A stretch of DNA of 64,000 nucleotides, from positions 6,995,001 to 7,059,000 of the forward strand of contig NC_007645.1 in assembly GCF_000012985.1 (NCBI RefSeq), given 5' to 3'. This DNA comes from Hahella chejuensis KCTC 2396 (lineage in GTDB: Bacteria; Pseudomonadota; Gammaproteobacteria; Pseudomonadales; Oleiphilaceae). Under the pieces are notes generated by a model. The model worked only from the letters and a program-made list of their open reading frames with translations. It made no database searches and was not told the origin of the DNA. Shown here in pieces: positions 2,246 through 13,609 of this stretch (position 1 is its first letter; the number at the start of each line of letters is the position of its first letter). A program made the translations under genes and the position numbers.

Positions 2246-2938
2246 CTATTTCAGCCAGGAAAAAGACCGCGCCAGAAACTCGGAGCCATGGCCGATAACA
2301 CATTCGCCATGGGCGATGATGATGTTGTCCGGTCGCCACGCCTGCATTTTGCGCAGCGCGGCCCTGGCTTTGGACCTGCCGAATATAAAAGTGAGACGCC
2401 AGTCTATCGGCGTCTTGCCGTGAGGCGCGACAATTCCGGTCAGCAAGGCGACCCAGCGTCGCCAACCATGAAAGTGGTCCATCCGAAAGTTTTCGATCAA
2501 ATCTCCGAGAATCAGTGTGCGGCTGCTGCGGTGAAAGAAAACCGCTTCTTTCATGGCGAAACTGCCGCGAAACAAAGTCTGATCCACGTCCTTTTCCCAC
2601 CCCGGCTCCGGGTTCTCACCCAGTAAGCCGTCAAAGGAAATATCCTTACGTTTTTCCTGCAAGCCAGGAGTGCCGTAACAGGCCGCGTCAGGAAAGCGCT
2701 CCATCCACTGGGGCAAAAACAAATGATGAAGTTTATTCGGCGTCACCAGATATTTGACTGGCCCCAACTCCGCCACTTCCCGCGCCAGTGCGTCATCATA
2801 ACGAGTGGGTGAGTGAACGAGGATATCGCCGTTGGACAAGCGCACCACTGTCATACGGGTGGTATACGCCAATCCAAAGTAGGGAACCGCTTCGCCGTTG
2901 TAGATCCAGAGATTTTCCGCTATTGCAATGAGACTCAT
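2246..2938 (-). CDS. DUF4336 domain-containing protein
   Basis: The 230-residue protein starts at 2938, with AAGGAGGAAGGC directly upstream, which overrules the longer frame. The sequence begins MSLIAIAENLWIYNG and continues with DILVHSPTRYD, VKYLVTPNKLHHLFLPQW, RTLILGDLIENF and IIIAHGECV. This is the DUF4336 pattern, a degenerate metallo-beta-lactamase-like fold in which several metal ligands survive (NKLHH, GDLIEN, AHGE). Its biochemical function is unknown. It converges on the ODP-type gene with a 19-base gap, so the two MBL-fold genes are tail to tail and not co-transcribed. Confidence is high for the family and low for any activity. Confidence 0.75.
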   Translation of the reverse strand: MSLIAIAENLWIYNGEAVPYFGLAYTTRMTVVRLSNGDILVHSPTRYDDALAREVAELGPVKYLVTPNKLHHLFLPQWMERFPDAACYGTPGLQEKRKDISFDGLLGENPEPGWEKDVDQTLFRGSFAMKEAVFFHRSSRTLILGDLIENFRMDHFHGWRRWVALLTGIVAPHGKTPIDWRLTFIFGRSKARAALRKMQAWRPDNIIIAHGECVIGHGSEFLARSFSWLK

Positions 2939-3028
2939 GCCTTCCTCCTTGTATGAGCGTTCACATACTGACGTCAGCATATCCTATGCCACTTCCTGGC
3001 CAAGACGTCAAAATATTCTAAAAGCATA

Positions 3029-3063
3029 GCCCGCCCAACTACTTCATTTGAAGAGCGAGCCAT
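3029..3063 (-). terminator. weak stem-loop after the first PEP-CTERM gene
   Basis: In the transcript direction GCTCGC pairs with GCGGGC (one G-U pair) around an inner CTTCA/TGAAG helix, about 25 bases past the stop codon at 3086. No T-run follows, so termination is only suggested. Confidence 0.3.
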
Positions 3064-3085
3064 ACTTAAAGCTGCTTGAGCCTAG

Positions 3086-4708
3086 TTACGCCGCTTTACG
3101 GAAACGTCTCGCGCCAGCGAATCCAGCCAGGCTGATGGTCATTAGAACCAGGGTGTAGGGTTCGGGCGCTCTAATGACTTTTATACTAAAAGTTTCCATC
3201 CCTTCAACCACCCGGCTTTTCGAGATCCACTCCAGATAGGGACCGATATCCGGCAGCTCAAAATGGCTGAACATACCGCTGATGTTACTCGCGCTAAATA
3301 GTGAAAACTCGTCATTCACTTCAGGTTTGAAAGTTTCCCAGAGGTCGATTTTAAGAATACCATCCAGTCTCGCTTCATCTTCAACATTGACCATAAAGTC
3401 GCCAATTGAGCCCCAATCCCCCAACGTCAACTGCAAGGTGGCGCTCTCCTCCTGCCAATACTCCCCTTTGATGGTCAGAGTCCCGCCGTTTTCTCCTGTA
3501 GCGACAACGCCGCCGTCATTGTTCCATACAATAGTAGAGTATTCTCCAGGAACGTCTCCCGCTCTGATCACTCCAGAGCCTTGGACCTTGCCGCCTTCCG
3601 TTTGCATAATATTCACGTCGACATCGCTGTCTTCCATCACCAGTACGCCACCAGATCTGACAATTAACTCTCTGCTTGAGAGACTTGCTCCGTTTTTAAC
3701 CGTTGTCGTTCCATCAATGAAGAAATAACTTCCTTCATCAAACTTAGAACCTGCTTCGATGGTTAAACTCTTACCAATTTTGATATAGCTACCCGTCATG
3801 GTTGCGCCATTTTGAATTATCAGGTCTTCACCAAAATAAGCTGTATCCCACATGTCCATTGAAGAGTTCTTTCCATCTATCACTACCTTTCCATAGTAGC
3901 TACCGAATTCCGCAGAGACCCTGGCGCCGTTAGTTATACTAATAGTCCCTTCTTCCGTCAGATTCATATAATGTGCGCTCAGGCTTGAGTTATCCCCATC
4001 CATAAGCACTTTTCCATTAAGTTCCGCTTCCTCTGCAGTCAACCAAGAACCACTATTAATTTCGAGCACCCCGTTTCTTAACTGCACATCTTCGTTTAGG
4101 GACATGGTGGACTGATCGTTGAACGCTAACCTGCCGTCCACATGAGTAGAGTATCCGGTAATATGCGTCTTATTTTTCAGCTCTAGCGACCCTTCGCCTC
4201 CTCCGCTATCCGTGTCTGAAAAGCCAACATAATATTTCATCCCTAAAAAGGCGCTTCTTCCTGTTTCCATGCCATCAAGAACAAGGCTGCCTTTAGTACC
4301 GCTCTCACTTCCTATCAGTATTTTTATTTCTTCGTCCGTGTCGTCTCTATACCGATTGAGTTCACCATTCCTCAGTGTTAAATGTCCGCCTGAATGGCTG
4401 TTTACAGAAATACCATCTTGCATTTCCAGGTTATGACCATCGAGGTCAATAACAACCTCGTCGCTCTTCACTGAAACGCCCTGAACATTTACGTCCTCAG
4501 ACAGTGACGCGGTATAAGCGCTGTCTGCACCCGTATTGAACGAAGCTGAGTCCGATGCGCCGGGAGCCGTCCCTCCCACCCAATTTGCGTCATTATTAAA
4601 ATCACCGCCGCTTGTATTGTTCCAGTCAATGACTGTTGCCTGTGCAACAGACGCGCAGCTTACAAACACGAATGAAGTTAAAATTCCCAGACCTTGAGTC
4701 GTCTTCAC
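3086..4708 (-). CDS. PEP-CTERM sorting domain protein, array copy 1 (most divergent centre)
   Basis: This 540-residue exported protein starts at a GTG (4708) behind AAGGGGTGT, the same context as the other copies. A Sec signal peptide (MKTTQGLG... to AQA) is followed by the WNNxxGGDFNNxANW motif that opens many beta-strand-repeat surface proteins. The middle is a long run of short repeats rich in Gly, Ser, Asn and hydrophobic strands (patterns such as VLDG, LELKN, LxIxxGS) expected to form a right-handed beta helix. The C-terminus is a tripartite sorting tag: PEPYTL, a hydrophobic helix, then ARRFRKAA. PEP-CTERM tags are processed by exosortase; no exosortase lies in this window. Function is unknown; an extracellular matrix or surface role is inferred from the family. 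Confidence 0.88.
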   Translation of the reverse strand: MKTTQGLGILTSFVFVSCASVAQATVIDWNNTSGGDFNNDANWVGGTAPGASDSASFNTGADSAYTASLSEDVNVQGVSVKSDEVVIDLDGHNLEMQDGISVNSHSGGHLTLRNGELNRYRDDTDEEIKILIGSESGTKGSLVLDGMETGRSAFLGMKYYVGFSDTDSGGGEGSLELKNKTHITGYSTHVDGRLAFNDQSTMSLNEDVQLRNGVLEINSGSWLTAEEAELNGKVLMDGDNSSLSAHYMNLTEEGTISITNGARVSAEFGSYYGKVVIDGKNSSMDMWDTAYFGEDLIIQNGATMTGSYIKIGKSLTIEAGSKFDEGSYFFIDGTTTVKNGASLSSRELIVRSGGVLVMEDSDVDVNIMQTEGGKVQGSGVIRAGDVPGEYSTIVWNNDGGVVATGENGGTLTIKGEYWQEESATLQLTLGDWGSIGDFMVNVEDEARLDGILKIDLWETFKPEVNDEFSLFSASNISGMFSHFELPDIGPYLEWISKSRVVEGMETFSIKVIRAPEPYTLVLMTISLAGFAGARRFRKAA

Positions 4709-4754
4709 TGTTACACCCCTTGTGTATTAGTTCATTTATATGGCGCAGACTCGT

Positions 4755-4771
4755 TAGCAAGGTGCGGACCA
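4755..4771 (-). promoter_or_regulatory. sigma-54 promoter of PEP-CTERM copy 1
   Basis: On the minus strand the site reads TGGTCCGCACCTTGCTA: the invariant GG and GC are separated by exactly 10 bases as in the RpoN -24/-12 consensus. It lies 47 bases upstream of the GTG start. Confidence 0.75.
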
Positions 4772-4854
4772 GAATATTTTTATATTTAAAATCAACAATA
4801 TATAACTTATAAAATATTCAACAAGACAAATATGTAAAATATTTTGACTATATA

Positions 4855-4867
4855 AATCAACATCTTA
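4855..4867 (+). promoter_or_regulatory. IHF-consensus site upstream of copy 1
   Basis: AATCAACATCTTA matches WATCAANNNNTTR at every position. It sits inside an AT-rich block (4832-4871) conserved upstream of copies 1-4 and about 85 bases above the sigma-54 promoter, a layout that suits DNA bending between an enhancer-bound activator and RpoN polymerase. Confidence 0.6.
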
Positions 4868-5046
4868 CAAGCATACTTAACTATTAAGAATACTTGTACT
4901 ATCAATATATATGTGACAGCAAATCTCATTTTTATAAAGAAGACTTACCATATACAAGAAAAGACAACTAGGTGAGAATTTGTTTTATAAATAAACAAAT
5001 AAAGTTCAGATACGTATAGATTAAGGCAGATTAAAAGAAGGGAACG

Positions 5047-5083
5047 TAAAAGCCCGCACTTTGCAATTTAACAAAGTACGGGC
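5047..5083 (-). terminator. rho-independent terminator of PEP-CTERM copy 2
   Basis: In transcript sense a 12-base-pair stem (GCCCGTACTTTG with CAAAGTGCGGGC, one mismatch) is followed by TTTTA. It lies about 28 bases past the stop codon, separating this transcript from copy 1. Confidence 0.75.
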
Positions 5084-5110
5084 GGAATATCTCAATAAAC
5101 AGGACTGGGC

Positions 5111-6598
5111 TTACGCCGCTTTACGGAAACGTCTCGCGCCAGCGAATCCCGCCAAACCGATAGTCATCAGCACGATGGTATAAGGCTCTGGCACGCCTTT
5201 GACGACCTTCAGGCTAAACGTTTCCAAGCCCGCCACCATGTCGCTTCCCCAGTCCCAGCCCAAGCCAGGAGACAGTTTCGGCAACACAAAGTCGCTGAAC
5301 ATACCATTGATGTTGTCTGCTTTGATCAGGGTGAACACGTCATTCAGCTGGGGTTTAAACGTATCCCAAAGATCAATCTTCAGAATGCCGTCCAGATCAG
5401 CGTCACCGTTGATATTCAGCTTGTAGTCGCCAATCGCATCCCAGTCGCCCAAGGTAAGCTCCAGCGTGCTGCCATGCTCCTGCGTATAGTTTCCATCAAT
5501 ATTCAAAGAAGAACCGTTTGCTCCCGTCGCGATAGTCCCTTCATATGTATTTTGGACATCACCGGTTATGTCGCCATTCCCTTGTATTTTACCGCCTTCC
5601 GTCATCACTCTTTGCGCGGCGACCTTACCTTCATCCAACAGCAATACGCCTCCTGGTATTGCTGAGATAGCATCTGCGGATTTAAGAAGGCCTCCATTGG
5701 TGACAGTCGCGTTTCCGCTTATGGACATCAAATATGTGGTGTTTTCATACTCAGAACCCACTCCATCAATAATCAACTTACCGACGACACTGGTGTTACT
5801 GCCATCTCCTGTAGCTCCATCTTGATAGGTCAAAGCGCCACTTATATGACCGATTTCAGAAAAGAATAAACTAGAACCTTCGCCACTCACCAGAGCGTCA
5901 CCACTGATATCGCCAAAGGAAACACCAACGCTCCCCCCCTCAGAAATGTCAAGTGAAGCGCTATTCTCTAGTGTGAAGTCATTCATCGCAGAAAAACTCG
6001 ATCCTCCAGTGACCGACATTTCACTGCCCGCTCCAATAAAGGCATCCTGGCCCGAAACTCTCGAATCATTCCTGATCTGCAAAGCGCCCTTCCCAACGGT
6101 ACCCATAAAGTGGCCGATCTGATATTGCACTCTATGGGTACCGTTGCGGCCGAAGTTAACATTGTCGAATACAAGCGTTCCGTAAGTATCAGCCTGGCTA
6201 CCAACTGAGATAGAGACACGCTCACCTTCATAACCTTGCTCTTTATTAAAAGCGCCATCCCGCATTACGAGCTTCCCGGCTTTAGCTCCGCCTACCGTTA
6301 TACCTCTAGCTGTATCCAGGTTATGTCCACTCAAATTGATCACGACGTCGTCATTTATTACTGACACATCATTGACACTGGCGTCCTGCGATAAGGATGC
6401 GCTATACGAACCGGCAACATCCGTATTGAATGATGCTGTATCTGCAGCGCCTGGCGCCGAGCCTCCCGCCCAGTTTGCTCCATTGTTAAAGTCACCGCCG
6501 CTTACATTGCTCCAGTCAATCACCGCCGCCTGGGAGACGGAAGCACAGCTTACAAATACTAATGAAGTTAAAATTCCTAGACCTTGAGTAGTCTTCAT
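5111..6598 (-). CDS. PEP-CTERM sorting domain protein, array copy 2
   Basis: This 495-residue protein starts at ATG 6598 behind AAGGGGTGTAACA; the frame is open 17 codons further up, but that stretch holds the sigma-54 promoter. The signal peptide ends VSQA and the mature protein begins AVIDWSNVSGGDF. The centre consists of beta-helix-like repeats unlike those of its neighbours. The last roughly 140 residues, from the SLNIDGNYTQ block to the end, are almost identical to copy 3. The C-terminal tag is VPEPYTIVLMTIGLAGF then ARRFRKAA. No catalytic motif is visible. Presumably it is an exosortase-processed surface or matrix protein. Its own promoter and terminator make it a separate transcription unit. 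Confidence 0.9.
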   Translation of the reverse strand: MKTTQGLGILTSLVFVSCASVSQAAVIDWSNVSGGDFNNGANWAGGSAPGAADTASFNTDVAGSYSASLSQDASVNDVSVINDDVVINLSGHNLDTARGITVGGAKAGKLVMRDGAFNKEQGYEGERVSISVGSQADTYGTLVFDNVNFGRNGTHRVQYQIGHFMGTVGKGALQIRNDSRVSGQDAFIGAGSEMSVTGGSSFSAMNDFTLENSASLDISEGGSVGVSFGDISGDALVSGEGSSLFFSEIGHISGALTYQDGATGDGSNTSVVGKLIIDGVGSEYENTTYLMSISGNATVTNGGLLKSADAISAIPGGVLLLDEGKVAAQRVMTEGGKIQGNGDITGDVQNTYEGTIATGANGSSLNIDGNYTQEHGSTLELTLGDWDAIGDYKLNINGDADLDGILKIDLWDTFKPQLNDVFTLIKADNINGMFSDFVLPKLSPGLGWDWGSDMVAGLETFSLKVVKGVPEPYTIVLMTIGLAGFAGARRFRKAA

Positions 6599-6643
6599 TG
6601 TTACACCCCTTGTGTAATAGTTCGTTTTTAGGCGGAGCCGTTT

Positions 6644-6660
6644 CAGCAAAGTACGAGCCA
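6644..6660 (-). promoter_or_regulatory. sigma-54 promoter of PEP-CTERM copy 2
   Basis: Minus-strand TGGCTCGTACTTTGCTG has GG and GC 10 bases apart and the TTGC of the -12 element. The predicted transcript start is about 36 bases upstream of the ATG at 6598. Confidence 0.8.
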
Positions 6661-6745
6661 GAATTATTTTTTATATTAAATTCATGCACTTAAAATGGTT
6701 TCCGTAAAATTCGTCACGTTTCATGTAAAATATTTTGACTATATA

Positions 6746-6758
6746 AATCAATAACTTA
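6746..6758 (+). promoter_or_regulatory. IHF-consensus site upstream of copy 2
   Basis: AATCAATAACTTA fits WATCAANNNNTTR exactly. The surrounding block, about 6723-6797, is almost identical to that upstream of copy 3, including a CTTGTTCAGAAAACTTGTA stretch that may contain the activator site. Confidence 0.6.
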
Positions 6759-6938
6759 CAAGAATTCTTCCTTGTTCAGAAAACTTGTATTTTGCATCCA
6801 TGTACAGCGCTCACACTGAGACCATGAAACGTTGAGGTTATGAATTGTAGGGTCAGAAACGACGATTAATATCGACAGGAGTTAACGGGCGAGGTGTGCA
6901 GTAAATGGTCACAGACTGTCAGGAGTAGGAAGGTAAGT

Positions 6939-6968
6939 CCCGTACTTTGCGATATCACAAAGTACGGG
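6939..6968 (-). terminator. stem-loop after PEP-CTERM copy 3
   Basis: CCCGTACTTTG and CAAAGTACGGG form a perfect 11-base-pair stem with an 8-base loop, 28 bases past the stop codon. The following transcript sequence (ACTTACC) is not a T-run, so it may stabilise the 3' end as much as terminate. Confidence 0.65.
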
Positions 6969-6996
6969 CGGAATATCTCAATAAACAGGACTGGGA

Positions 6997-8475
6997 TTAC
7001 GCCGCTTTACGAAAACGTCTCGCGCCAGCGAATCCAGCCAGGCCAATAGTCATCAGCACGATGGTGTAAGGCTCTGGCACGCCTTTGACGACCTTCAGGC
7101 TAAACGTTTCCAAGCCCGCCACCATGTCGCTTCCCCAATCCCAACCTAAGCCAGGAGACAGTTTCGGCAACACAAAGTCGCTGAACATACCATTGATGTT
7201 GTCTGCTTTGATCAGCGTGAACACGTCATTCAGCTGGGGTTTAAACGTATCCCAAAGATCAATCTTCAGAATGCCGTCCAGATCAGCGTCACCGTTGATA
7301 TTTAGCTTGTAGTCGCCAATCGCATCCCAGTCGCCCAAGGTCAGCTCCAAAGTGCCGCTATGCCCCTGCGTATAGTTTCCATCAATATTCAAAGAAGAAC
7401 CGTTTGCTCCCGTCGCGACGGTTCCTTTATCCGTGTTCTTAACATTACCGGTAATATCTCCAGCGCCCTGAATACGGCCAGCGAATTCAGTCATTAAAGA
7501 CGAGGCTTCAATTTGAGCGTTGTCTAAATTCATAACGCCAGTAACCGTAATCAGATCACTGGCCACAAGGCTCCCGCCATTACTGACGACAACATTACCG
7601 CCCAAATCCATAGAACCTATAGCCCTAATTTCAGTTCCAGCGCCATCTACAGTAAAACGCCCTCCCGTAGAGATACGGCCGCCCGAACCCGTGGCGCCAT
7701 TTTGAAAGGTGGTCTCTCCACTAAAATCTCCGAACTCGCCTACACTGAGATCTGAGCCTCTTCCATCCACCAGCGTTTTTCCGGATATATAGGCGCCGGA
7801 AGATCCTAGCCCAGCGCCGCCTGTAATCTCCAGAACGCCATCAAGGTCCAACTCGCCAGCCAGGCCCATACTAGAGCCTTCCGAAAGGATCAATTTGCCC
7901 CCGATATAAGCAGACTGCCCGGTGACGCCTGACTTATTCTTCAGCTCTAAAACCCCTTCTCTGGTCCCACCCGATGCAGGGGGATAACCCACGTAAAGCT
8001 GCATCCTTGAGCCCATTCCTCTCCCGCCGAAATCAACGCCATCCAAAACAAGTCGGCTTTCGGAGGCTGAGGCGCTATCCACCAAGATTTCCACCAGGTC
8101 TCCGTATTCATCACCGTTCTGATTAAAGGAGCCATTCCTCAGCGTTAACGTAGCGCCTTTGTCGCCGCTGACAGATATTCCTGTCAGCGTTTCCAAATTC
8201 TGGCCATTCAAATCGATCACGACGTGGTCATTTTTTACTGACACATTATCGACATCAGTGTCCTGCGATAGGGATGCAGTATACGAACCGGCAACATCCG
8301 TATTGAATGATGCTGTATCTGCAGCGCCCGGCGCCGAGCCTCCCGCCCAGTTTGCTCCATTGTTAAAATCACCGCCGCTTACATTGTTCCAGTCAATCAC
8401 CGCTGCCTGGGAGACAGAAGCACAGCTTACAAATACTAATGAAGTTAAAATTCCTAGACCTTGAGTAGTCTTCAT
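6997..8475 (-). CDS. PEP-CTERM sorting domain protein, array copy 3
   Basis: This 492-residue exported protein starts at ATG 8475. It shares its signal peptide and the first 60 or so residues with copy 2 (mature start AVIDWNNVSGGDF), then runs through a distinct Gly/Ser-rich repeat centre with strand-like units such as VLELKNKSGVTG and TLVDGRGSDLSVG. From the NIDGNYTQ block to the stop it is almost identical to copy 2, ending in the same PEP-CTERM tag. The conserved ends flanking a variable middle suggest recombination between copies. Its own sigma-54 promoter lies just upstream. The function is unassigned; the context implies a family of cell-surface or biofilm proteins expressed under one activator. 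Confidence 0.9.
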   Translation of the reverse strand: MKTTQGLGILTSLVFVSCASVSQAAVIDWNNVSGGDFNNGANWAGGSAPGAADTASFNTDVAGSYTASLSQDTDVDNVSVKNDHVVIDLNGQNLETLTGISVSGDKGATLTLRNGSFNQNGDEYGDLVEILVDSASASESRLVLDGVDFGGRGMGSRMQLYVGYPPASGGTREGVLELKNKSGVTGQSAYIGGKLILSEGSSMGLAGELDLDGVLEITGGAGLGSSGAYISGKTLVDGRGSDLSVGEFGDFSGETTFQNGATGSGGRISTGGRFTVDGAGTEIRAIGSMDLGGNVVVSNGGSLVASDLITVTGVMNLDNAQIEASSLMTEFAGRIQGAGDITGNVKNTDKGTVATGANGSSLNIDGNYTQGHSGTLELTLGDWDAIGDYKLNINGDADLDGILKIDLWDTFKPQLNDVFTLIKADNINGMFSDFVLPKLSPGLGWDWGSDMVAGLETFSLKVVKGVPEPYTIVLMTIGLAGFAGARRFRKAA

Positions 8476-8520
8476 TGTTACACCCCTTGTGTAATAGTTC
8501 GTTTTTAGGCGCAACCTTTT

Positions 8521-8537
8521 TAGCAAGGTATGAGCCA
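8521..8537 (-). promoter_or_regulatory. sigma-54 promoter of PEP-CTERM copy 3
   Basis: Minus-strand TGGCTCATACCTTGCTA has the -24 GG and -12 GC at the canonical 10-base gap, 46 bases upstream of the ATG. Confidence 0.8.
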
Positions 8538-8623
8538 TAATTGTTTTTTTATTTAAAATTCATATAGTTAAAATAATTTCCATAAAGTTCGTCACGTTTC
8601 GTGTAAAATATTTTGACTATATA

Positions 8624-8636
8624 AATCAATAACTTA
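8624..8636 (+). promoter_or_regulatory. IHF-consensus site upstream of copy 3
   Basis: AATCAATAACTTA is identical to the site upstream of copy 2 and fits the IHF consensus fully. Sequence similarity to the copy 2 upstream region continues with gaps toward the next terminator, showing that the intergenic region was duplicated with the gene. Confidence 0.6.
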
Positions 8637-8859
8637 CAAGAATTCTTTCTTGTTCAGAAAACTTGTATTTTGCTCATATGCACAGCGCCCCACACTGTCT
8701 GAGTCTTGCTTGTCGCATTAGAAACAATCCGAGGCGCTTCACGCTGAGCCATGAAACATTAAAGTTTTGAATTGTAGGGTCAGAAACGACGGTAAATATC
8801 GATTGAAGTTAGCGGGCGGGAGGTGCAAAGAATGGTCACAGACAAGTAGGGAGGTAAAT

Positions 8860-8889
8860 CCCGTACTTTACGTTCCAGCAAAGTACGGG
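8860..8889 (-). terminator. stem-loop after PEP-CTERM copy 4
   Basis: CCCGTACTTT pairs with AAAGTACGGG (10 base pairs), 28 bases past the stop codon. It is nearly the same hairpin as after copies 2 and 3; the transcript continues ATTTACC. Confidence 0.65.
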
Positions 8890-8917
8890 CAAAACATATC
8901 AATAAACAGAACTGGGC

Positions 8918-10411
8918 TTACGCCGCTTTACGAAAACGTCTCGCGCCAGCGAATCCAGCCAGGCCAATAGTCATCAATACAATGGTGTAGGGCTCAGGCA
9001 CGTTTTTCACAACTTTCAGACTGAAAGTCTCCAAGCCTGCAACCATCACGCTACCCCAGTCCCAGGCTAAACCAGAAGCCAAACTCGGTAATACGAAGTC
9101 ACTGAACATACCATTGATGTTTTCCGCTTTGATCAGCGTGAATACGTCATTCAGCTCAGGCTTGAAGGTGTCCCAAAGATCGATCTTTAGAATGCCGTCC
9201 AGATTAGCGTCGCCAGAAATATTCAGCTCATAGTCGCCAATCGCATCCCAACCACCCAGAGTCAACGCCAGGGTGCTTGAGCTGTCTTGCGAATAGTCGC
9301 CAGTAATAGTTAACGCATCGCCATTCTCTCCCGTCGCCACCGTGCCACGGTTAGTATTGCTGACGTTGCCCTTTACTTCACCGGAGCCTTCAATCTTACC
9401 GCCTTCTGTTAACACAGCTCCTGCGCTTACTTTTCCGTCATGCAAGGACAACACACCGCCCGGAAGCGCAGAAATTGCGTAATCTGAGCTCAAACTCGCG
9501 CCGTGGCTGACAGTAAGCCTGCCACTGACATCTACATTCCCCATGGCTGAGAAGTCAGAACCTGCGCCGTCGATGGTCATGCGGTTACCTACAGCTATAT
9601 TTCCTCCACTGCCGGTTGCTCCGTTCTGATAAGTTATGTCCCCATCCATGTAGCCATATTCGCCGACATTAAGACTGGAGTGTTCTCCGTCTACCAGAAC
9701 TTTTCCGGCAAGACTTGCGCCAGATGAGCTAACACCGGTGCCTTCAGATATTTTCAGATATCCACCGCTCTCCATAATCAACTCATTCGCCAGGTTTAAC
9801 CCGGAGCCGCCGGAGATTAATACTTTACCTTTATCTCCGATAAAGGCAGTTTGGCCCCGAGCCTGGGAGCCATTCTTAAGCTCCAGCGTCCCCTCTCCGC
9901 CACCAAAACCAGAGTGGGACTGGCCTATGTAATATTGCATCCTGCCGTAAATTTCAGGACTACCAAATTCAACGCCATCAAGCACCAGGTCGCCTTTGGA
10001 GCCTGCTTCGCTGCCGACAAGCACTTTGATCAAATCGCCACTATAATCAGCTTTCTGATTATACTTGCCTCCCCGCAGGGTCAGACGACCGCCCTCTGTC
10101 CCGCCAACAGAGATTCCAGAGGCGGTTTCCAGATTGTGGCCATTAAGCTCCATAGTGACGTCATCGTCATTAACAGAGACGTTTTGGGCGTCGGCGTCTT
10201 CTGAAAATGTGGTGGTATAGGAGCTTGCAGCGCCTGAATCAAACAACGCTTCGTCAGTTTTTCCTGGCGCGGCCCCACCAGACCAATTAGCGTCATCGCT
10301 ATAGTTTCCGCCGCCAATATTGTTCCAATTAATTACCGCCGCCTGGGATAGAGAAGCGCAGGTAACAAATACTAATGAAGAAAAAATACGCAGACCTTGA
10401 GTAGTCTTCAC
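8918..10411 (-). CDS. PEP-CTERM sorting domain protein, array copy 4
   Basis: This 497-residue protein starts at GTG 10411, aligned with the ATG or GTG of the other copies and preceded by the same AAGGGGTGT. The signal peptide MKTTQGLRIFSSL... ends LSQA; the mature form begins AVINWNNIGGGNY. The centre has beta-strand repeats of its own. The C-terminal 140 residues resemble copies 2 and 3 but with scattered substitutions, marking it as an older duplicate. It ends NVPEPYTIVLMTIGLAGF and ARRFRKAA. Regulation is likely by RpoN and an enhancer-binding protein, since both promoter and IHF-like site are preserved. Confidence 0.9.
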   Translation of the reverse strand: MKTTQGLRIFSSLVFVTCASLSQAAVINWNNIGGGNYSDDANWSGGAAPGKTDEALFDSGAASSYTTTFSEDADAQNVSVNDDDVTMELNGHNLETASGISVGGTEGGRLTLRGGKYNQKADYSGDLIKVLVGSEAGSKGDLVLDGVEFGSPEIYGRMQYYIGQSHSGFGGGEGTLELKNGSQARGQTAFIGDKGKVLISGGSGLNLANELIMESGGYLKISEGTGVSSSGASLAGKVLVDGEHSSLNVGEYGYMDGDITYQNGATGSGGNIAVGNRMTIDGAGSDFSAMGNVDVSGRLTVSHGASLSSDYAISALPGGVLSLHDGKVSAGAVLTEGGKIEGSGEVKGNVSNTNRGTVATGENGDALTITGDYSQDSSSTLALTLGGWDAIGDYELNISGDANLDGILKIDLWDTFKPELNDVFTLIKAENINGMFSDFVLPSLASGLAWDWGSVMVAGLETFSLKVVKNVPEPYTIVLMTIGLAGFAGARRFRKAA

Positions 10412-10457
10412 TATTACACCCCTTGTGCCACAGTTTATTTATATAACGGGTGTCTAT

Positions 10458-10474
10458 GGGCAAGGAGAGGACCA
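10458..10474 (-). promoter_or_regulatory. sigma-54 promoter of PEP-CTERM copy 4
   Basis: Minus-strand TGGTCCTCTCCTTGCCC keeps GG and GC at the 10-base spacing, 47 bases upstream of the GTG. Confidence 0.7.
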
Positions 10475-10562
10475 AGTATTTAATTAACTTTTAAAATCAT
10501 TAGGTTATATTATTAACATTAGTTAACTCATTGATTTTATGTAAAAATATCTGACTCAATAA

Positions 10563-10575
10563 AATCAATAAGTTA
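10563..10575 (+). promoter_or_regulatory. IHF-consensus site upstream of copy 4
   Basis: AATCAATAAGTTA fits WATCAANNNNTTR. It lies in a block (10539-10581) recognisably related to the conserved upstream block of copies 1-3 although diverged around it. The remainder of the gap up to copy 5 (10582-10847) holds no gene I can support. Confidence 0.55.
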
Positions 10576-10847
10576 CAAGAAAACTACTCAAAAAAAACAT
10601 GCCGCAGAAACATCTTATCCCCAAAGAATTAGGTCTCATTGTTAGCAAAGCAGTGAGCCGCTCAACTGACCGTTATGACTTGGATATAGCAATTCAATCG
10701 CCCGTTGGAATTGACTATTCGCGGGTAGTGAATAAACGCAAGGATCACTCAGAGGTATTCAAATAATGAACTATTCGAAGGGGACAACGCCCCCTGCCAT
10801 GGCCGGCCAGGGGACAATTTTCAGTTCAGGAAGGAGCCGCTTAAGAG

Positions 10848-12305
10848 CTATTTGCGAAGAAGTCTGACGCCAGCCATTCCAGCCAGGCTTAACGCCATCA
10901 ATACGAATACGTATGGTTCGGGAACAGGCTTACTGGATGCGCTGGATACGATTCTTAAGCCAAATGAGTTCACGCCAGCGTAGGAGCGGCGATATCCCCA
11001 ATCCCAATGCATGCCAAACCCCAAGTCGGGAAGCACAAAATCGCTAAACATCCCGTTTATTTTGTCAGCGTTGATCAGAGTGAAGAAGTCATGCAGTCTG
11101 GGTTTAAATTCATCCCACAGATTGATTTGGAGTACCCCGTCCAGGTTCGCCACGCCATCTATATTCAGCTCGTAACCGCCAAGCGTACTCCAATCTCCCA
11201 AAGTAATTTCCAGCTTGCTTGACTCATCTTGAGTATAATCGCCTTCCACTCGAATAGAGCCGCCAAACTCGCCCGTCGAAACGACCCCGCCGCGGGTGTT
11301 ATTCAGGTTACCCTTAATTTCACCAGAACCGCTTAGCGCGCCTCCGTTCATGTCGAGAGAGGAAGTGGAGATTTTACCTTCACCTAATGAGATCTGGCTT
11401 TCACGGGATAAGCTCAGGTTGTCAGCGATTAATTCTCCGTGATTTCTGATCTCCAGTTTGCGGACTTCGCTCTCCCCTTCTGAGGTGAATGAACTCCCAG
11501 CGCCATCAATAGTCACGTCACCCAGACTGACGCCCCATCCCTGGCCCTTGCCGCCGTTTTGGAATTTTGCAGTACCAAGTGCGCCATTGGGACCCATTTC
11601 AAACAATGAACCTTCGCCATCTACAAGCACGTTCGTATTCGCAACCGAAGCGCCCGTAGCAGTCACTCTGGAGCCTTCTTTTATGGCGATGCGGCCCCCG
11701 TAACCATAAAGCTCATTCGTCAACGACAATGTAGACCCCCCTGAAAGAGAAAGCTCGCCACTCTTGCCAATCGTTGCTGACTGCCCCCATGCGGATGAAC
11801 CATTTTCAAACCTGAGCGCACCGGCCCCGTCCTTTCCAATCTCATACTGTAAGGAGCCTTGGTTCACAAAGTTATCGCCAAAGCTGACGTTATCAAAAAC
11901 TAACGAGCTGTTTGTTACGTCATCATTACCTACCGCGATTATTTTGGGCGGTCCGCTATCTCCTACAGTCTCATTGAACTTGCCATTCTTGATCGTGAGC
12001 TGGCTTTTTACAGTGACGCCCCGCTCCGCATCCAGATTATTTTCGTTCAGGTCCACAGTGACAGCGCCCTCAGCCGCCGATAACTCACCGATACTCGCAT
12101 TATCAGAGAGCACAGCATGACTGCCGTCTGTTGAGAATTTCGCCGTATCTGTGACGCTGGGCGTCGCGCCGCCAGACCAATTCGCGCCATTGTTAAAGTC
12201 GCTCCCCTCAGACCCATTCCACTCAATTAAGGCCGCTTGCGATGTTGAAGCACACGCCACAAATACAATGGAAGAAAATAGTAAGGAATTATTTGAAGTC
12301 TTCAC
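10848..12305 (-). CDS. PEP-CTERM sorting domain protein, array copy 5 (divergent)
   Basis: This 485-residue product starts at GTG 12305, matching the GTG/ATG of the other copies; a longer open frame upstream is rejected because the signal peptide (MKTSNNSLLFSSIVFVACAS...SQA) begins here. The mature N-terminus ALIEWNGSEGSDFNNGANW keeps the family opening, and the middle is Gly/Ser-rich strand repeats. The tail carries an extra SSASSK stretch before VPEPYVFVLMALSLAGM and VRLLRK, so the basic end is shorter than in copies 1-4. It lacks the clean sigma-54 promoter of its neighbours: a TTTGCTAA element is present but no GG sits 12 bases above it. It is the oldest or most independent member of the array. 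Confidence 0.88.
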   Translation of the reverse strand: MKTSNNSLLFSSIVFVACASTSQAALIEWNGSEGSDFNNGANWSGGATPSVTDTAKFSTDGSHAVLSDNASIGELSAAEGAVTVDLNENNLDAERGVTVKSQLTIKNGKFNETVGDSGPPKIIAVGNDDVTNSSLVFDNVSFGDNFVNQGSLQYEIGKDGAGALRFENGSSAWGQSATIGKSGELSLSGGSTLSLTNELYGYGGRIAIKEGSRVTATGASVANTNVLVDGEGSLFEMGPNGALGTAKFQNGGKGQGWGVSLGDVTIDGAGSSFTSEGESEVRKLEIRNHGELIADNLSLSRESQISLGEGKISTSSLDMNGGALSGSGEIKGNLNNTRGGVVSTGEFGGSIRVEGDYTQDESSKLEITLGDWSTLGGYELNIDGVANLDGVLQINLWDEFKPRLHDFFTLINADKINGMFSDFVLPDLGFGMHWDWGYRRSYAGVNSFGLRIVSSASSKPVPEPYVFVLMALSLAGMAGVRLLRK

Positions 12306-12643
12306 TTTTACACCCCCTGTGTGAAAGTTCTTAAAAAAATAAGCTCTCAAAAATGAGCCGTTAGCAAACTTGTGTTTGCCTTTATAAATCACAGAATTAA
12401 TAAAAATCAACATCCATAATCAAAAAAACCATGTAAAATCAAAAGGCTTATAACTTATGCATGAATACTTGCCAGCTTTGTAAACTCTACAAATTGTCTC
12501 TCTTTTCAAATACAACATTAAAACCCATAGAAATGATTTCATGGCGCATAAACTATTAAACACAGAACCCCCGACCCTTTTCAAAATAACCATAGCATCA
12601 CACTATGATGCCTCAGGTTATATCGACTAAATAGAGGTTTACC
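12306..12643. other. AT-rich intergenic region upstream of copy 5
   Basis: No gene is supported here. The minus strand has a degenerate -12-like TTTGCTAA near 12360 and a partial version of the conserved upstream block near 12430 (ATGTAAAATC...). The plus strand must carry the promoter of the DUF1653 gene, but I see no clear boxes. Confidence 0.4.
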
Positions 12644-12886
12644 ATGCACTTACCCAAAGGCATCTACCAGCATTACAAAGGACCGCGTTATCAGTTATTG
12701 GAGGTGGCGCGGCATTCGGAGACGGAGGAGTGGTTTGTGGTGTATCGCGCGTTGTACGGCGATTATGGCGTGTGGGTGCGGCCGTTGTCGATGTTTGATG
12801 AAACCATCGAGAAAGACGGGGTCAAAGTAAAACGTTTCGCCTATATTGGTCCGGCGGAAGCGGACTCAGAACGCCCGCAGCAGTAG
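12644..12886 (+). CDS. DUF1653 domain-containing protein
   Basis: This 80-residue protein fills the DUF1653 family length. Diagnostic stretches are GIYQHYKGPRYQLLEVARHSE, TEEWFVVYRALYGDYGVWVRP and the SMFDETI motif near the C-terminus. The family is a small beta-rich fold of unknown function, found as single-gene units across Proteobacteria. The start follows TAGAGGTTTACC, giving an acceptable ribosome-binding site (GAGG). Its 3' end overlaps the convergent TauE/SafE gene by 21 bases, so the two transcripts oppose each other. Confidence 0.85.
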   Translation: MHLPKGIYQHYKGPRYQLLEVARHSETEEWFVVYRALYGDYGVWVRPLSMFDETIEKDGVKVKRFAYIGPAEADSERPQQ

Positions 12887-13609
12887 CCATAATCCCGCTA
12901 CGCCAGTCATGATCAGGGCGATGCGGTTGAACCACTGCTGTGGTATCCAGACCAGAAAGCGGCGTCCTGCGTAGGCGCCGAGCAACACCAGGGGAACTGT
13001 CGCCAGATAGCTCAGCAGGTAATAATCCTTGAGCACGCCCAGATAGGCGTAGACCGGAACCTTAGTCAGGTTGACGATTAGAAAGAATACCGCCGCCGTA
13101 CCGATAAAACCGTGCTTATCGATCTTCAGCAGCAAAAAATACAGGGTGAGAATAGGGCCGGCGGCGTTGCCGATGGTGGTGGCGATACCCGCCATGATCC
13201 CCGAGGAATAGCGCACCGCGTTCAGCCGCCGCATCGCCCAGGCGGTGATATAAGGCCGCAACGGCTCCATCGCCACCAGGAACAGAATCAAGGCGCCAAT
13301 GACAGGCCCCAGACTCTCGTTGTCCAGAAACTGCAACGCCAGAGCGCCAAGCCCGATGCCGATAAAAATGGACGGCAGCATCTTGCCCAGCTCACTCCAA
13401 TGCGCCTGCCGCCAATACAGGCTGACAGCCACCACATCCCCCGCCAGCAGATACAGCAAGGTAATTCCCAAGGCGTCTTTGGGAGGAAACACCAACGCCA
13501 TCGCGGCGGAAATCAAACCGCCCAACGCCGGTACGCCCGCTTTGACGAAACCAGTGAATATCGCCACAGCGGCGAGAAAAGCCAATATGCCAGGATCGAG
13601 AAGCGTCAT
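12866..13609 (-). CDS. TSUP family sulfite/sulfonate exporter (TauE/SafE)
   Basis: This 247-residue polytopic inner-membrane protein has about eight hydrophobic segments in two halves, the TSUP architecture. Marker regions are GFVKAGVPALGG in the first half and GIATTIGNAAGPILTLYFL in the second. Family members move sulfite, sulfoacetate or other small organosulfur anions; the substrate cannot be read from sequence. No sulfur-metabolism gene is adjacent. It stands alone on the minus strand and overlaps the DUF1653 gene tail to tail. Confidence 0.88.
   Translation of the reverse strand: MTLLDPGILAFLAAVAIFTGFVKAGVPALGGLISAAMALVFPPKDALGITLLYLLAGDVVAVSLYWRQAHWSELGKMLPSIFIGIGLGALALQFLDNESLGPVIGALILFLVAMEPLRPYITAWAMRRLNAVRYSSGIMAGIATTIGNAAGPILTLYFLLLKIDKHGFIGTAAVFFLIVNLTKVPVYAYLGVLKDYYLLSYLATVPLVLLGAYAGRRFLVWIPQQWFNRIALIMTGVAGLWLLLRAF

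What the first reader, a model, noticed from the sequence alone, without database searches (positions are those of the whole stretch)
3086..10580. Sigma-54 promoter plus IHF site repeated at four tandem PEP-CTERM genes
Four adjacent paralogues each have TGG-N10-GC promoters (4755, 6644, 8521, 10458) 46-47 bases above the start codon and a full match to WATCAANNNNTTR roughly 85-90 bases further upstream, in a shared AT-rich block. This is the architecture of enhancer-dependent transcription. PrsK/PrsR-type NtrC regulators and RpoN have been tied to PEP-CTERM/exosortase systems in other bacteria, so the array is probably one regulon within that system. The exact activator site is unknown; the shared stretch around 6760-6797 and 8641-8673 is the best candidate.
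Basis: partly seen in the sequence, partly recalled or inferred. Interest (0 to 1): 0.75.

Follow-up and report, generated by a model that had tools for sequence, protein, structure and literature searches.

The report
Tandem PEP-CTERM genes, PrsR/sigma-54 promoters
Four neighbouring genes for surface proteins each carry their own copy of a switch that was described in 2006 and whose two halves, here and in many other bacteria, tend to sit a whole number of DNA helix turns apart.

Summary
Four tandem minus-strand PEP-CTERM genes each have TGG-N10-GC 47-48 bp above the start codon and a full IHF-consensus match 83-88 bp further upstream. The general reading (sigma-54 plus PrsK/PrsR) is right but not new: Haft et al. 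2006 described this two-motif module and list Hahella chejuensis, to which the window's genome corresponds. The activator site was misplaced: it is Haft's motif 1, GTC-N7-TTTACA, 61-65 bp above TGG, not the 6760-6797 stretch. The exact motif pair also precedes 68 of 157 other PEP-CTERM upstream regions. Two refinements. (1) The motif 1 to TGG spacing is helically phased (41-44, 51-53, 61-66, 73-77, 85-87, 95-97; exception 69 in three related genes). A phase noted beforehand held in a later set; the array sits on one tooth. (2) The IHF match above motif 1 is array-specific (0 of 68 other promoters within 35 bp) yet fits 9 of 9 homologous Hahella regions. An imperfect IHF-like site about 19 bp above TGG recurs, firmly in one genus only. 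In two relatives the single homologue lacks both promoter motifs. The array is an ordinary member of a known regulon; the phasing is the new part.

The parts
3086..4708 (-). g1, PEP-CTERM protein (540 aa, GTG start)
   Evidence: TIGR02595 19.9 bits against cut-off 16
5111..6598 (-). g2, PEP-CTERM protein (ATG start, MKTTQG)
   Evidence: TIGR02595 24.1 bits
6997..8475 (-). g3, PEP-CTERM protein; model of many short strands, beta-helix-like
   Evidence: mean pLDDT 80.9; best PDB match a beta-helix domain (E 2e-4, TM 0.34-0.38), then autotransporter passengers at E 0.01 and above
8918..10411 (-). g4, PEP-CTERM protein (GTG start)
   Evidence: TIGR02595 25.1 bits
10848..12308 (-). g5, divergent fifth paralogue; C-terminus below the PEP-CTERM cut-offs; no sigma-54 module found
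   Evidence: 45% identity to g3; 15.5 bits against 16; best motif 2 score -5.9
4757..4771 (-). g1 -24/-12 element TGGTCCGCACCTTGC (Haft motif 2)
6646..6660 (-). g2 -24/-12 element TGGCTCGTACTTTGC
8523..8537 (-). g3 -24/-12 element TGGCTCATACCTTGC
10460..10474 (-). g4 -24/-12 element TGGTCCTCTCCTTGC
4833..4849 (-). g1 predicted PrsR site AGTCAAAATATTTTACA (Haft motif 1), spacer 61
6724..6740 (-). g2 predicted PrsR site AGTCAAAATATTTTACA, spacer 63
8602..8618 (-). g3 predicted PrsR site AGTCAAAATATTTTACA, spacer 64
10540..10556 (-). g4 predicted PrsR site AGTCAGATATTTTTACA, spacer 65
4855..4867 (-). full IHF-consensus match above motif 1 (g1)
6746..6758 (-). full IHF-consensus match above motif 1 (g2)
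8624..8636 (-). full IHF-consensus match above motif 1 (g3)
10563..10575 (-). full IHF-consensus match above motif 1 (g4)
10524..10536 (-). second full IHF-consensus match, inside the g4 spacer, other orientation
4790..4802 (-). imperfect IHF-like site (1 mismatch), ends 18 bp above TGG (g1)
6680..6692 (-). imperfect IHF-like site (2 mismatches), ends 19 bp above TGG (g2)
8558..8570 (-). imperfect IHF-like site (2 mismatches), ends 20 bp above TGG (g3)
10495..10507 (-). imperfect IHF-like site (1 mismatch), ends 20 bp above TGG (g4)
6932..6972 (-). hairpin just after g3, consistent with separate transcription units
   Evidence: -21.8 kcal/mol, z -7.3
8856..8896 (-). hairpin just after g4
   Evidence: -19.4 kcal/mol, z -4.9

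Best explanation
Each of the four tandem genes is a separate unit read by RNA polymerase with RpoN (sigma-54). PrsR, the NtrC-type response regulator paired with the kinase PrsK, binds GTC-N7-TTTACA 61-65 bp above the -24/-12 element and touches the polymerase through a short loop. The distance keeps the two sites on the same face of the helix (about six turns); other genes of the regulon use about four to nine turns. An IHF-like bend, either at the imperfect site about 19 bp above TGG or at the array-specific full-consensus site just beyond motif 1, may stabilise the loop. Shown here from sequence: both motifs, their pairing, the phasing, conservation of the upstream IHF-like match, and the presence of PrsR, PrsK, RpoN and exosortase genes. 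Inferred: that PrsR binds motif 1, that IHF binds at all, and that the genes respond together.
For: The motif pair with at most one mismatch precedes 33 of 50 non-array Hahella PEP-CTERM regions, against a shuffle mean of 0.245. In a later set the exact pair precedes 35 of 78; spacing decoys GG-N7, N8, N9, N11, N12 and N13-GC give 2-8 of 78 each. A matrix built from 68 non-array promoters picks the four array sites as the four best pairs in the 64-kb window, 26.1-29.9 against 15.7 for the next. Phase noted beforehand and then met: V = 0.73, n = 35, 0 of 20,000 jittered sets as high; 0.71 with one per protein cluster, n = 30. The 28 decoy spacers give R = 0.08. PrsR has GAFTGA. Outside support: the Aquincola pepA start was mapped to -24/-12 and its transcription depends on RpoN1 (PMC9850573, passages).
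Against: No transcript, binding or mutant data exist here for these genes. The array motif 2 scores are low: 11.4, 12.2 and 11.1 lie between the minimum (10.2) and lower quartile (15.3) of the 68 others, and g4 (7.3) is below the minimum. Outside genus g128 the IHF-like site about 19 bp above TGG is no better than the best permuted decoy (18 of 53 against a decoy maximum of 18, mean 7.8). No other promoter has the array's upstream IHF position (0 of 68 within 35 bp). The homologues outside own and G025 (single genes in G019 and G031) lack GG-N10-GC at the aligned place and have no TTTACA or TCTACA within 330 bp; the G025 copy of g1 has TTTATA in place of TTTACA.
Confidence: 0.85

Rival explanations
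1. One reading: the activator binds the shared stretch around 6760-6797 / 8641-8673 and IHF, lying between it and the promoter, bends the loop in the classical way.
For: g1 has a strong 33-bp dyad there (13 of 15 pairs); the CTTGTAA half is kept in all four array genes; the IHF consensus lies between it and the promoter.
Against: The dyad has only 10 of 15 pairs in g2 and g3, no more than chance sites in the same regions, and is not found in g4. Motif 1, by contrast, is paired with motif 2 at 68 of 157 non-array regions and alone explains the common regulon.
Confidence: 0.07
2. The array has a second control layer: PrsR at motif 1 plus another protein at the dyad / IHF-like block just above it, a block found so far only at these tandem genes and their direct homologues.
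For: YAANNNNTTGATW fits 9 of 9 homologous upstream regions while its four N positions vary. The block stays in G019 and G031, where the aligned motif 1 and motif 2 do not fit. 0 of 68 other promoters have it within 35 bp above motif 1.
Against: The nine regions represent only about four lineages. TTGATTTATAT could be kept for another reason, such as an AT-rich or sigma-70 element. No binding data.
Confidence: 0.3
3. The repeated promoter is only a by-product of recent tandem duplication and says nothing about function.
For: The g2 and g3 upstream regions are near-identical, and no counterpart of g2 was found in G025, so copies are recent.
Against: g1 and g4 upstream regions differ over much of their length but keep the sites, and dispersed PEP-CTERM genes have the same pair.
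Confidence: 0.05

Closest known systems
PEP-CTERM / PrsK-PrsR cis-regulatory module (Haft et al. 2006, PMC1569441; section 7 in full, otherwise passages, among them the abstract and part of Table 1)
   Same: 17-nt motif 1 ending TTTACA, 17-nt sigma-54 motif 2, spacer 62.8 +/- 10.6 there and 61-65 here, long non-coding upstream regions, mostly single-gene units; Hahella chejuensis with 27 PEP-CTERM genes, PrsR HCH_02748 and PrsK HCH_02749 is in its table.
   Different: Section 7 and the passages that I saw report neither helical phasing of the spacer nor an IHF-like element (the term IHF occurs 0 times in the main text).
Aquincola tertiaricarbonis pepA (PMC9850573; passages)
   Same: RpoN-dependent PEP-CTERM gene with mapped -24/-12 and a predicted enhancer upstream.
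   Different: A flocculation-associated protein in another organism; experimental data exist there, none here.
Vibrio qrr enhancers, LuxO/sigma-54 (PMC4740811; section 10 in full and passages)
   Same: Activator-to-promoter distances fall in clusters displaced by about 11 bp.
   Different: 61 annotated qrr enhancers of one genus with loops of about 80-120 bp; here PEP-CTERM genes over many genera with spacers of 41-97.
IHF-assisted sigma-54 promoters (recalled; PMC3897727 seen in a search listing only)
   Same: IHF-like sites near a -24/-12 promoter and an activator site.
   Different: The full-consensus site of g1-g3 lies beyond the activator site rather than between.

Membership tests
PEP-CTERM / PrsR sigma-54 module (Haft 2006) | Motif 1, 17 nt with 3' end TTTACA | tested here: met
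   4 of 4 array promoters; matrix scores 17.7-18.8, within the range 11.3-23.8 of 68 others, below their lower quartile of 19.2
PEP-CTERM / PrsR sigma-54 module (Haft 2006) | Motif 2, -24(GG)/-12(GC) | tested here: met
   4 of 4; scores 11.4, 12.2, 11.1 and 7.3, the last below the minimum (10.2) of 68 others
PEP-CTERM / PrsR sigma-54 module (Haft 2006) | Spacer of 32-92 nt, mean 62.8 | tested here: met
   61, 63, 64, 65 (counted from TTTACA to TGG, so it may differ slightly from Haft's count)
PEP-CTERM / PrsR sigma-54 module (Haft 2006) | PrsR and PrsK in the genome | tested here: met
   One each over the cut-off, matches about 0.2 kb apart
PEP-CTERM / PrsR sigma-54 module (Haft 2006) | PrsT in the genome | not tested
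   Listed for Hahella in Haft's Table 1
PEP-CTERM proteins (TIGR02595) with exosortase | C-terminal PEP sorting domain; exosortase present | tested here: met
   g1-g4 over the cut-off, g5 not over it; Pfam PF07589 over its cut-off in g2-g4, below it in g1 and g5; two TIGR02602 genes over the cut-off, a third below
PEP-CTERM / PrsR sigma-54 module (Haft 2006) | PrsR binds motif 1 and transcription needs RpoN | not testable with these tools
   Needs experiments
IHF-assisted sigma-54 promoter | IHF site between activator site and promoter | tested here: inconclusive
   Full consensus between motif 1 and TGG only in g4; all four have 1-2-mismatch sites 18-20 bp above TGG
IHF-assisted sigma-54 promoter | IHF binding | not testable with these tools
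   IHF genes were not searched for and binding cannot be tested

The most novel reading that the evidence does not exclude
PrsR-type sigma-54 promoters form a helix-quantised enhancer class. The activator site sits at whole-turn distances (about four to nine turns, period about 10.8 bp) from the -24 element, often with an IHF-like bend fixed about 19 bp above it, so PrsR acts through a rigid, short, face-specific loop. The Hahella array adds an extra upstream IHF-like block of its own.
Probability: 0.5. Interest if true: 0.5.

Novelty: new member of a known kind. Interest (0 to 1): 0.4.

Why it matters
The array itself adds four clean, adjacent examples to a regulon known since 2006. The useful addition is that the spacing between the predicted PrsR site and the sigma-54 promoter comes in whole helix turns across many genera. 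This supports motif 1 as the site of a protein that touches the polymerase, gives a way to tell true sites from false ones, and makes a direct test possible: half-turn against full-turn insertions. It is a further natural case of phased bacterial enhancers beside the Vibrio qrr genes. The homologues without the promoter motifs in two relatives offer a natural comparison.

Tried and rejected
The 6760-6797 / 8641-8673 stretch as activator site: every 33-bp window of 13 upstream regions (nine array and direct homologues, two of g5, two of a dispersed paralogue) was scored as a dyad. g1 has 13 of 15 pairs there, its G025 counterpart 11, g2 and g3 10; unrelated places in these regions reach 10 commonly and 12 once (G031), so only g1 exceeds chance sites.

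IHF upstream of motif 1 as a general feature of the regulon: 0 of 33 Hahella non-array promoters within 90 bp, 3 of 33 in the spacer (shuffle mean 0.38). In the enlarged set 5 of 68 within 90 bp (shuffle mean 0.45; permuted decoys mean 0.41, maximum 3), but 0 of 68 within 35 bp. In the 89 upstream regions without the pair there are 7 matches in 52,231 bases (decoy mean 3.19, maximum 9).

IHF about 19 bp above TGG as a general feature: 13 of 15 in genus g128, 12 of 30 in others, 6 of 23 in Hahella outside the array (at most two mismatches, 18-20 bp). Permuted decoys outside g128 reach the same number (18 of 53) as IHF, so it is claimed as firm for g128 only. The window 7-11 bp above TGG also has an excess (19 of 68 with at most two mismatches, either orientation, against 41 of 68 at 17-21 and 11, 4, 1 and 3 of 68 in four other windows), which I did not follow.

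sigma-54 pattern alone as a genome-wide marker: too weak (276 against 207). Rfam at gathering thresholds in 2900-12900: nothing. Literature: PEP-CTERM with 'helical phasing' 0 papers; PEP-CTERM with 'integration host factor' 3 papers, seen in the listing only; the main text of the 2025 sigma-54 regulon paper PMC12316311 holds none of PEP-CTERM, exosortase, Hahella, IHF or helical.

Rows dropped: L001 and L016 (gene start outside the locus), L028-L030 (below cut-off), and the five window loci; L160 and L216 (no PEP codons located) and L154 (start outside); of the unfetched matches listed, five were not fetched (very short frames or matches at contig ends). About 40 further matches in Hahella relatives were not fetched. 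Doubtful pairs kept in counts: L003, L121, L131 and L136; several class loci have very short frames (L124, L128, L145). L169 had two possible spacers (49 and 73): one search took 49, one search tested with and without it, searches used 73. Held-out caveat: some later loci come from genomes or a genus already sampled (for example L152 and L159 resemble L122). The tooth positions used for '64 of 68 within 2.5 bp' were set after seeing the data.
Full report
WHAT IS THERE. The window is positions 6,995,001-7,059,000 of a single-contig genome of 7,215,267 bases. The size matches my recollection of Hahella chejuensis KCTC 2396, and the only close named relative found is Hahella sp. HN01, 96% identical over g3. 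Four minus-strand genes, 3086-4708, 5111-6598, 6997-8475 and 8918-10411, encode PEP-CTERM proteins of about 490-540 residues, all over the TIGR02595 cut-off; by Pfam g1 is just below its cut-off. A fifth, more distant paralogue lies upstream of g4 at 10848-12308 (45% identity to g3; just below the cut-off). Hairpins follow g3 and g4 (z -7.3 and -4.9); the one after g2 was cut by the stretch that I chose (z -2.1), and none was seen after g1 in 3050-3090. The genes therefore look like separate units, most clearly g3 and g4. The model of g3 consists mainly of short strands (mean pLDDT 80.9); its best solved match is a beta-helix domain (E 2e-4, TM 0.34-0.38), followed by autotransporter passengers at weaker E-values.

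THE OBSERVATION. The sigma-54 pattern alone is common in this genome: 276 sites against 207 for the reversed control. Adding TTTACA 48-78 bp upstream leaves 8 sites against 1; four are the array, and none of the other four has exact GTC in register.

THE KNOWN SYSTEM. Haft et al. 2006 (PMC1569441; section 7 read in full, other parts as passages) found that proteobacterial PEP-CTERM genes are preceded by a 17-nt motif 1 ending TTTACA, a spacer of 62.8 +/- 10.6, and a sigma-54 motif 2. They saw it at 99 of 167 genes and predicted that PrsR binds motif 1. Hahella chejuensis is in their table with PrsR and PrsK. In the window motif 1 reads AGTCAAAATATTTTACA (g1-g3) and AGTCAGATATTTTTACA (g4), with spacers 61, 63, 64 and 65. 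The genome holds one PrsR (696 bits) and one PrsK (728 bits) next to each other, one RpoN, and two exosortase-family genes over the cut-off plus one below it. PrsR carries GAFTGA. In Aquincola a PEP-CTERM gene was shown to depend on RpoN1 from a mapped -24/-12 start (PMC9850573, passages).

INDEPENDENT SUPPORT FOR THE MODULE. I examined 50 PEP-CTERM upstream regions in this genome (20) and five Hahella relatives (30), leaving out the array. 33 of 50 hold GTC-N7-TTTACA (at most one mismatch) followed at 40-95 bp by [TC]GG-N10-GC; shuffles give 0.245 on average and at most 2. In this genome alone it is 10 of 20, one of them doubtful (L003). Class-wide, 14 of 29 loci have such a pair, three of them doubtful. 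In a further 81 loci, 78 usable, 35 have the exact pair. The same search with the GG-GC gap changed to 7, 8, 9, 11, 12 or 13 finds 2-8 of 78. Pooled, 68 of 157 non-array regions have the exact pair. A matrix made from these 68 ranks the four array promoters as the four best pairs in the window (26.1-29.9; the next 15.7). The fifth paralogue has no such site. The array -24/-12 elements themselves score low: 11.4, 12.2, 11.1 and 7.3, where the 68 others have a minimum of 10.2 and a lower quartile of 15.3.

HELICAL PHASING. In the first set (29 clusters, array included) the spacers bunch at about 11-bp intervals (best period 10.8, R = 0.62; 0 of 5,000 jittered sets as high). I noted the phase before seeing the later loci. 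In those, 35 spacers gave V = 0.73 toward that phase (0 of 20,000); 0.71 with one per protein cluster (n = 30); and 0.73 for the 20 loci from L179 on, which are outside the G171 family. The later set alone fits a slightly longer period best (11.2). Over all 68 the values are 41-44, 51-53, 61-66, 69 (three related genes), 73-77, 85-87 and 95-97; 64 of 68 lie within 2.5 bp of a tooth, though the teeth were set after seeing the data. The 28 decoy spacers show no phase (R = 0.08, 12 of 28 on teeth). The array, at 61-65, lies on the six-turn tooth although its spacers differ by insertions and deletions. Clustering of enhancer distances by about 11 bp is known for Vibrio qrr promoters (PMC4740811, section 10), so the principle is not new. 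For this regulon, a search pairing PEP-CTERM with 'helical phasing' found no paper; one pairing it with 'integration host factor' listed three papers that I did not read.

THE IHF QUESTION. The full consensus above motif 1 fits 4 of 4 array promoters (shuffle mean 0.06). It also fits all nine homologous upstream regions aligned (own four, three in G025, single genes in G031 and G019), with the four unspecified positions varying. But 0 of 68 other promoters have it within 35 bp above motif 1. Elsewhere full matches are enriched inside the spacer (8 of 68, shuffle mean 0.62; permuted decoys mean 0.76, maximum 6). Imperfect matches peak with their end 19 bp above TGG (20 at 19 and 8 at 20 with at most two mismatches, against about one per position). 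This peak is clear in genus g128 (13 of 15); in the other 53 promoters the best permuted decoy does as well (18 against 18, decoy mean 7.8), so there it may be only a positioned AT pattern. All four array promoters have a site with one or two mismatches ending 18-20 bp above TGG.

HISTORY. Of 61 genomes examined in the family (drawn evenly from a larger group), four have a match at E <= 1e-10: own, G025, G019 and G031, all one genus; the last two have single genes. In those two the aligned -24 and -12 dinucleotides and TTTACA do not fit, while the upstream IHF-like block is kept; decay is the likelier direction because the rest of the -24 element still resembles g2, but this is inference. Both genomes still have PrsR and other PEP-CTERM genes, so the difference is local. 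No counterpart of g2 was found in G025, and the G025 copy of g1 has TTTATA for TTTACA.

VERDICT. What is added is the helical phasing, with good support, and a cautious revision of the IHF part.

Noticed in passing
window 5111-6598 and 6997-8475: g2 and g3 are mosaic: 93-99% nucleotide identity over about the first 200 and last 400 columns, 43-55% in the middle. Recent exchange of the ends or fast change of the middle would both fit.
   Followed up: partly
G031:C1:5902960-5904390 and G019:C1:358502-359938 (L074, L075): Single homologue with an open frame but without GG-N10-GC at the aligned place and without TTTACA; it may use another promoter or be silent.
   Followed up: partly
window 10848-12308: Fifth paralogue without a sigma-54 module and with a sub-threshold PEP-CTERM end; the matched stretch of its G025 counterpart holds one TAA.
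   Followed up: no
window 4866-4898, minus strand: g1 has a 33-bp dyad with 13 of 15 pairs (TACAAGTATTCTTAATAGTTAAGTATGCTTGTA), starting 190 bp above its start codon and running up to the IHF-like site; only 10 of 15 in g2 and g3.
   Followed up: partly
genus g128 (G171, G259, G260), loci L165, L173, L177: A full IHF-consensus match lies 78-80 bp above the start of motif 1 in three PEP-CTERM promoters of one genus; L173 has another in its spacer.
   Followed up: no
G000:C1:4772479 (L084) and G025 (L083): A dispersed relative of the array proteins (35% identity) has GG-N10-GC 194 bp above its start and TTTACA, without GTC in register, 67 bp further up.
   Followed up: no
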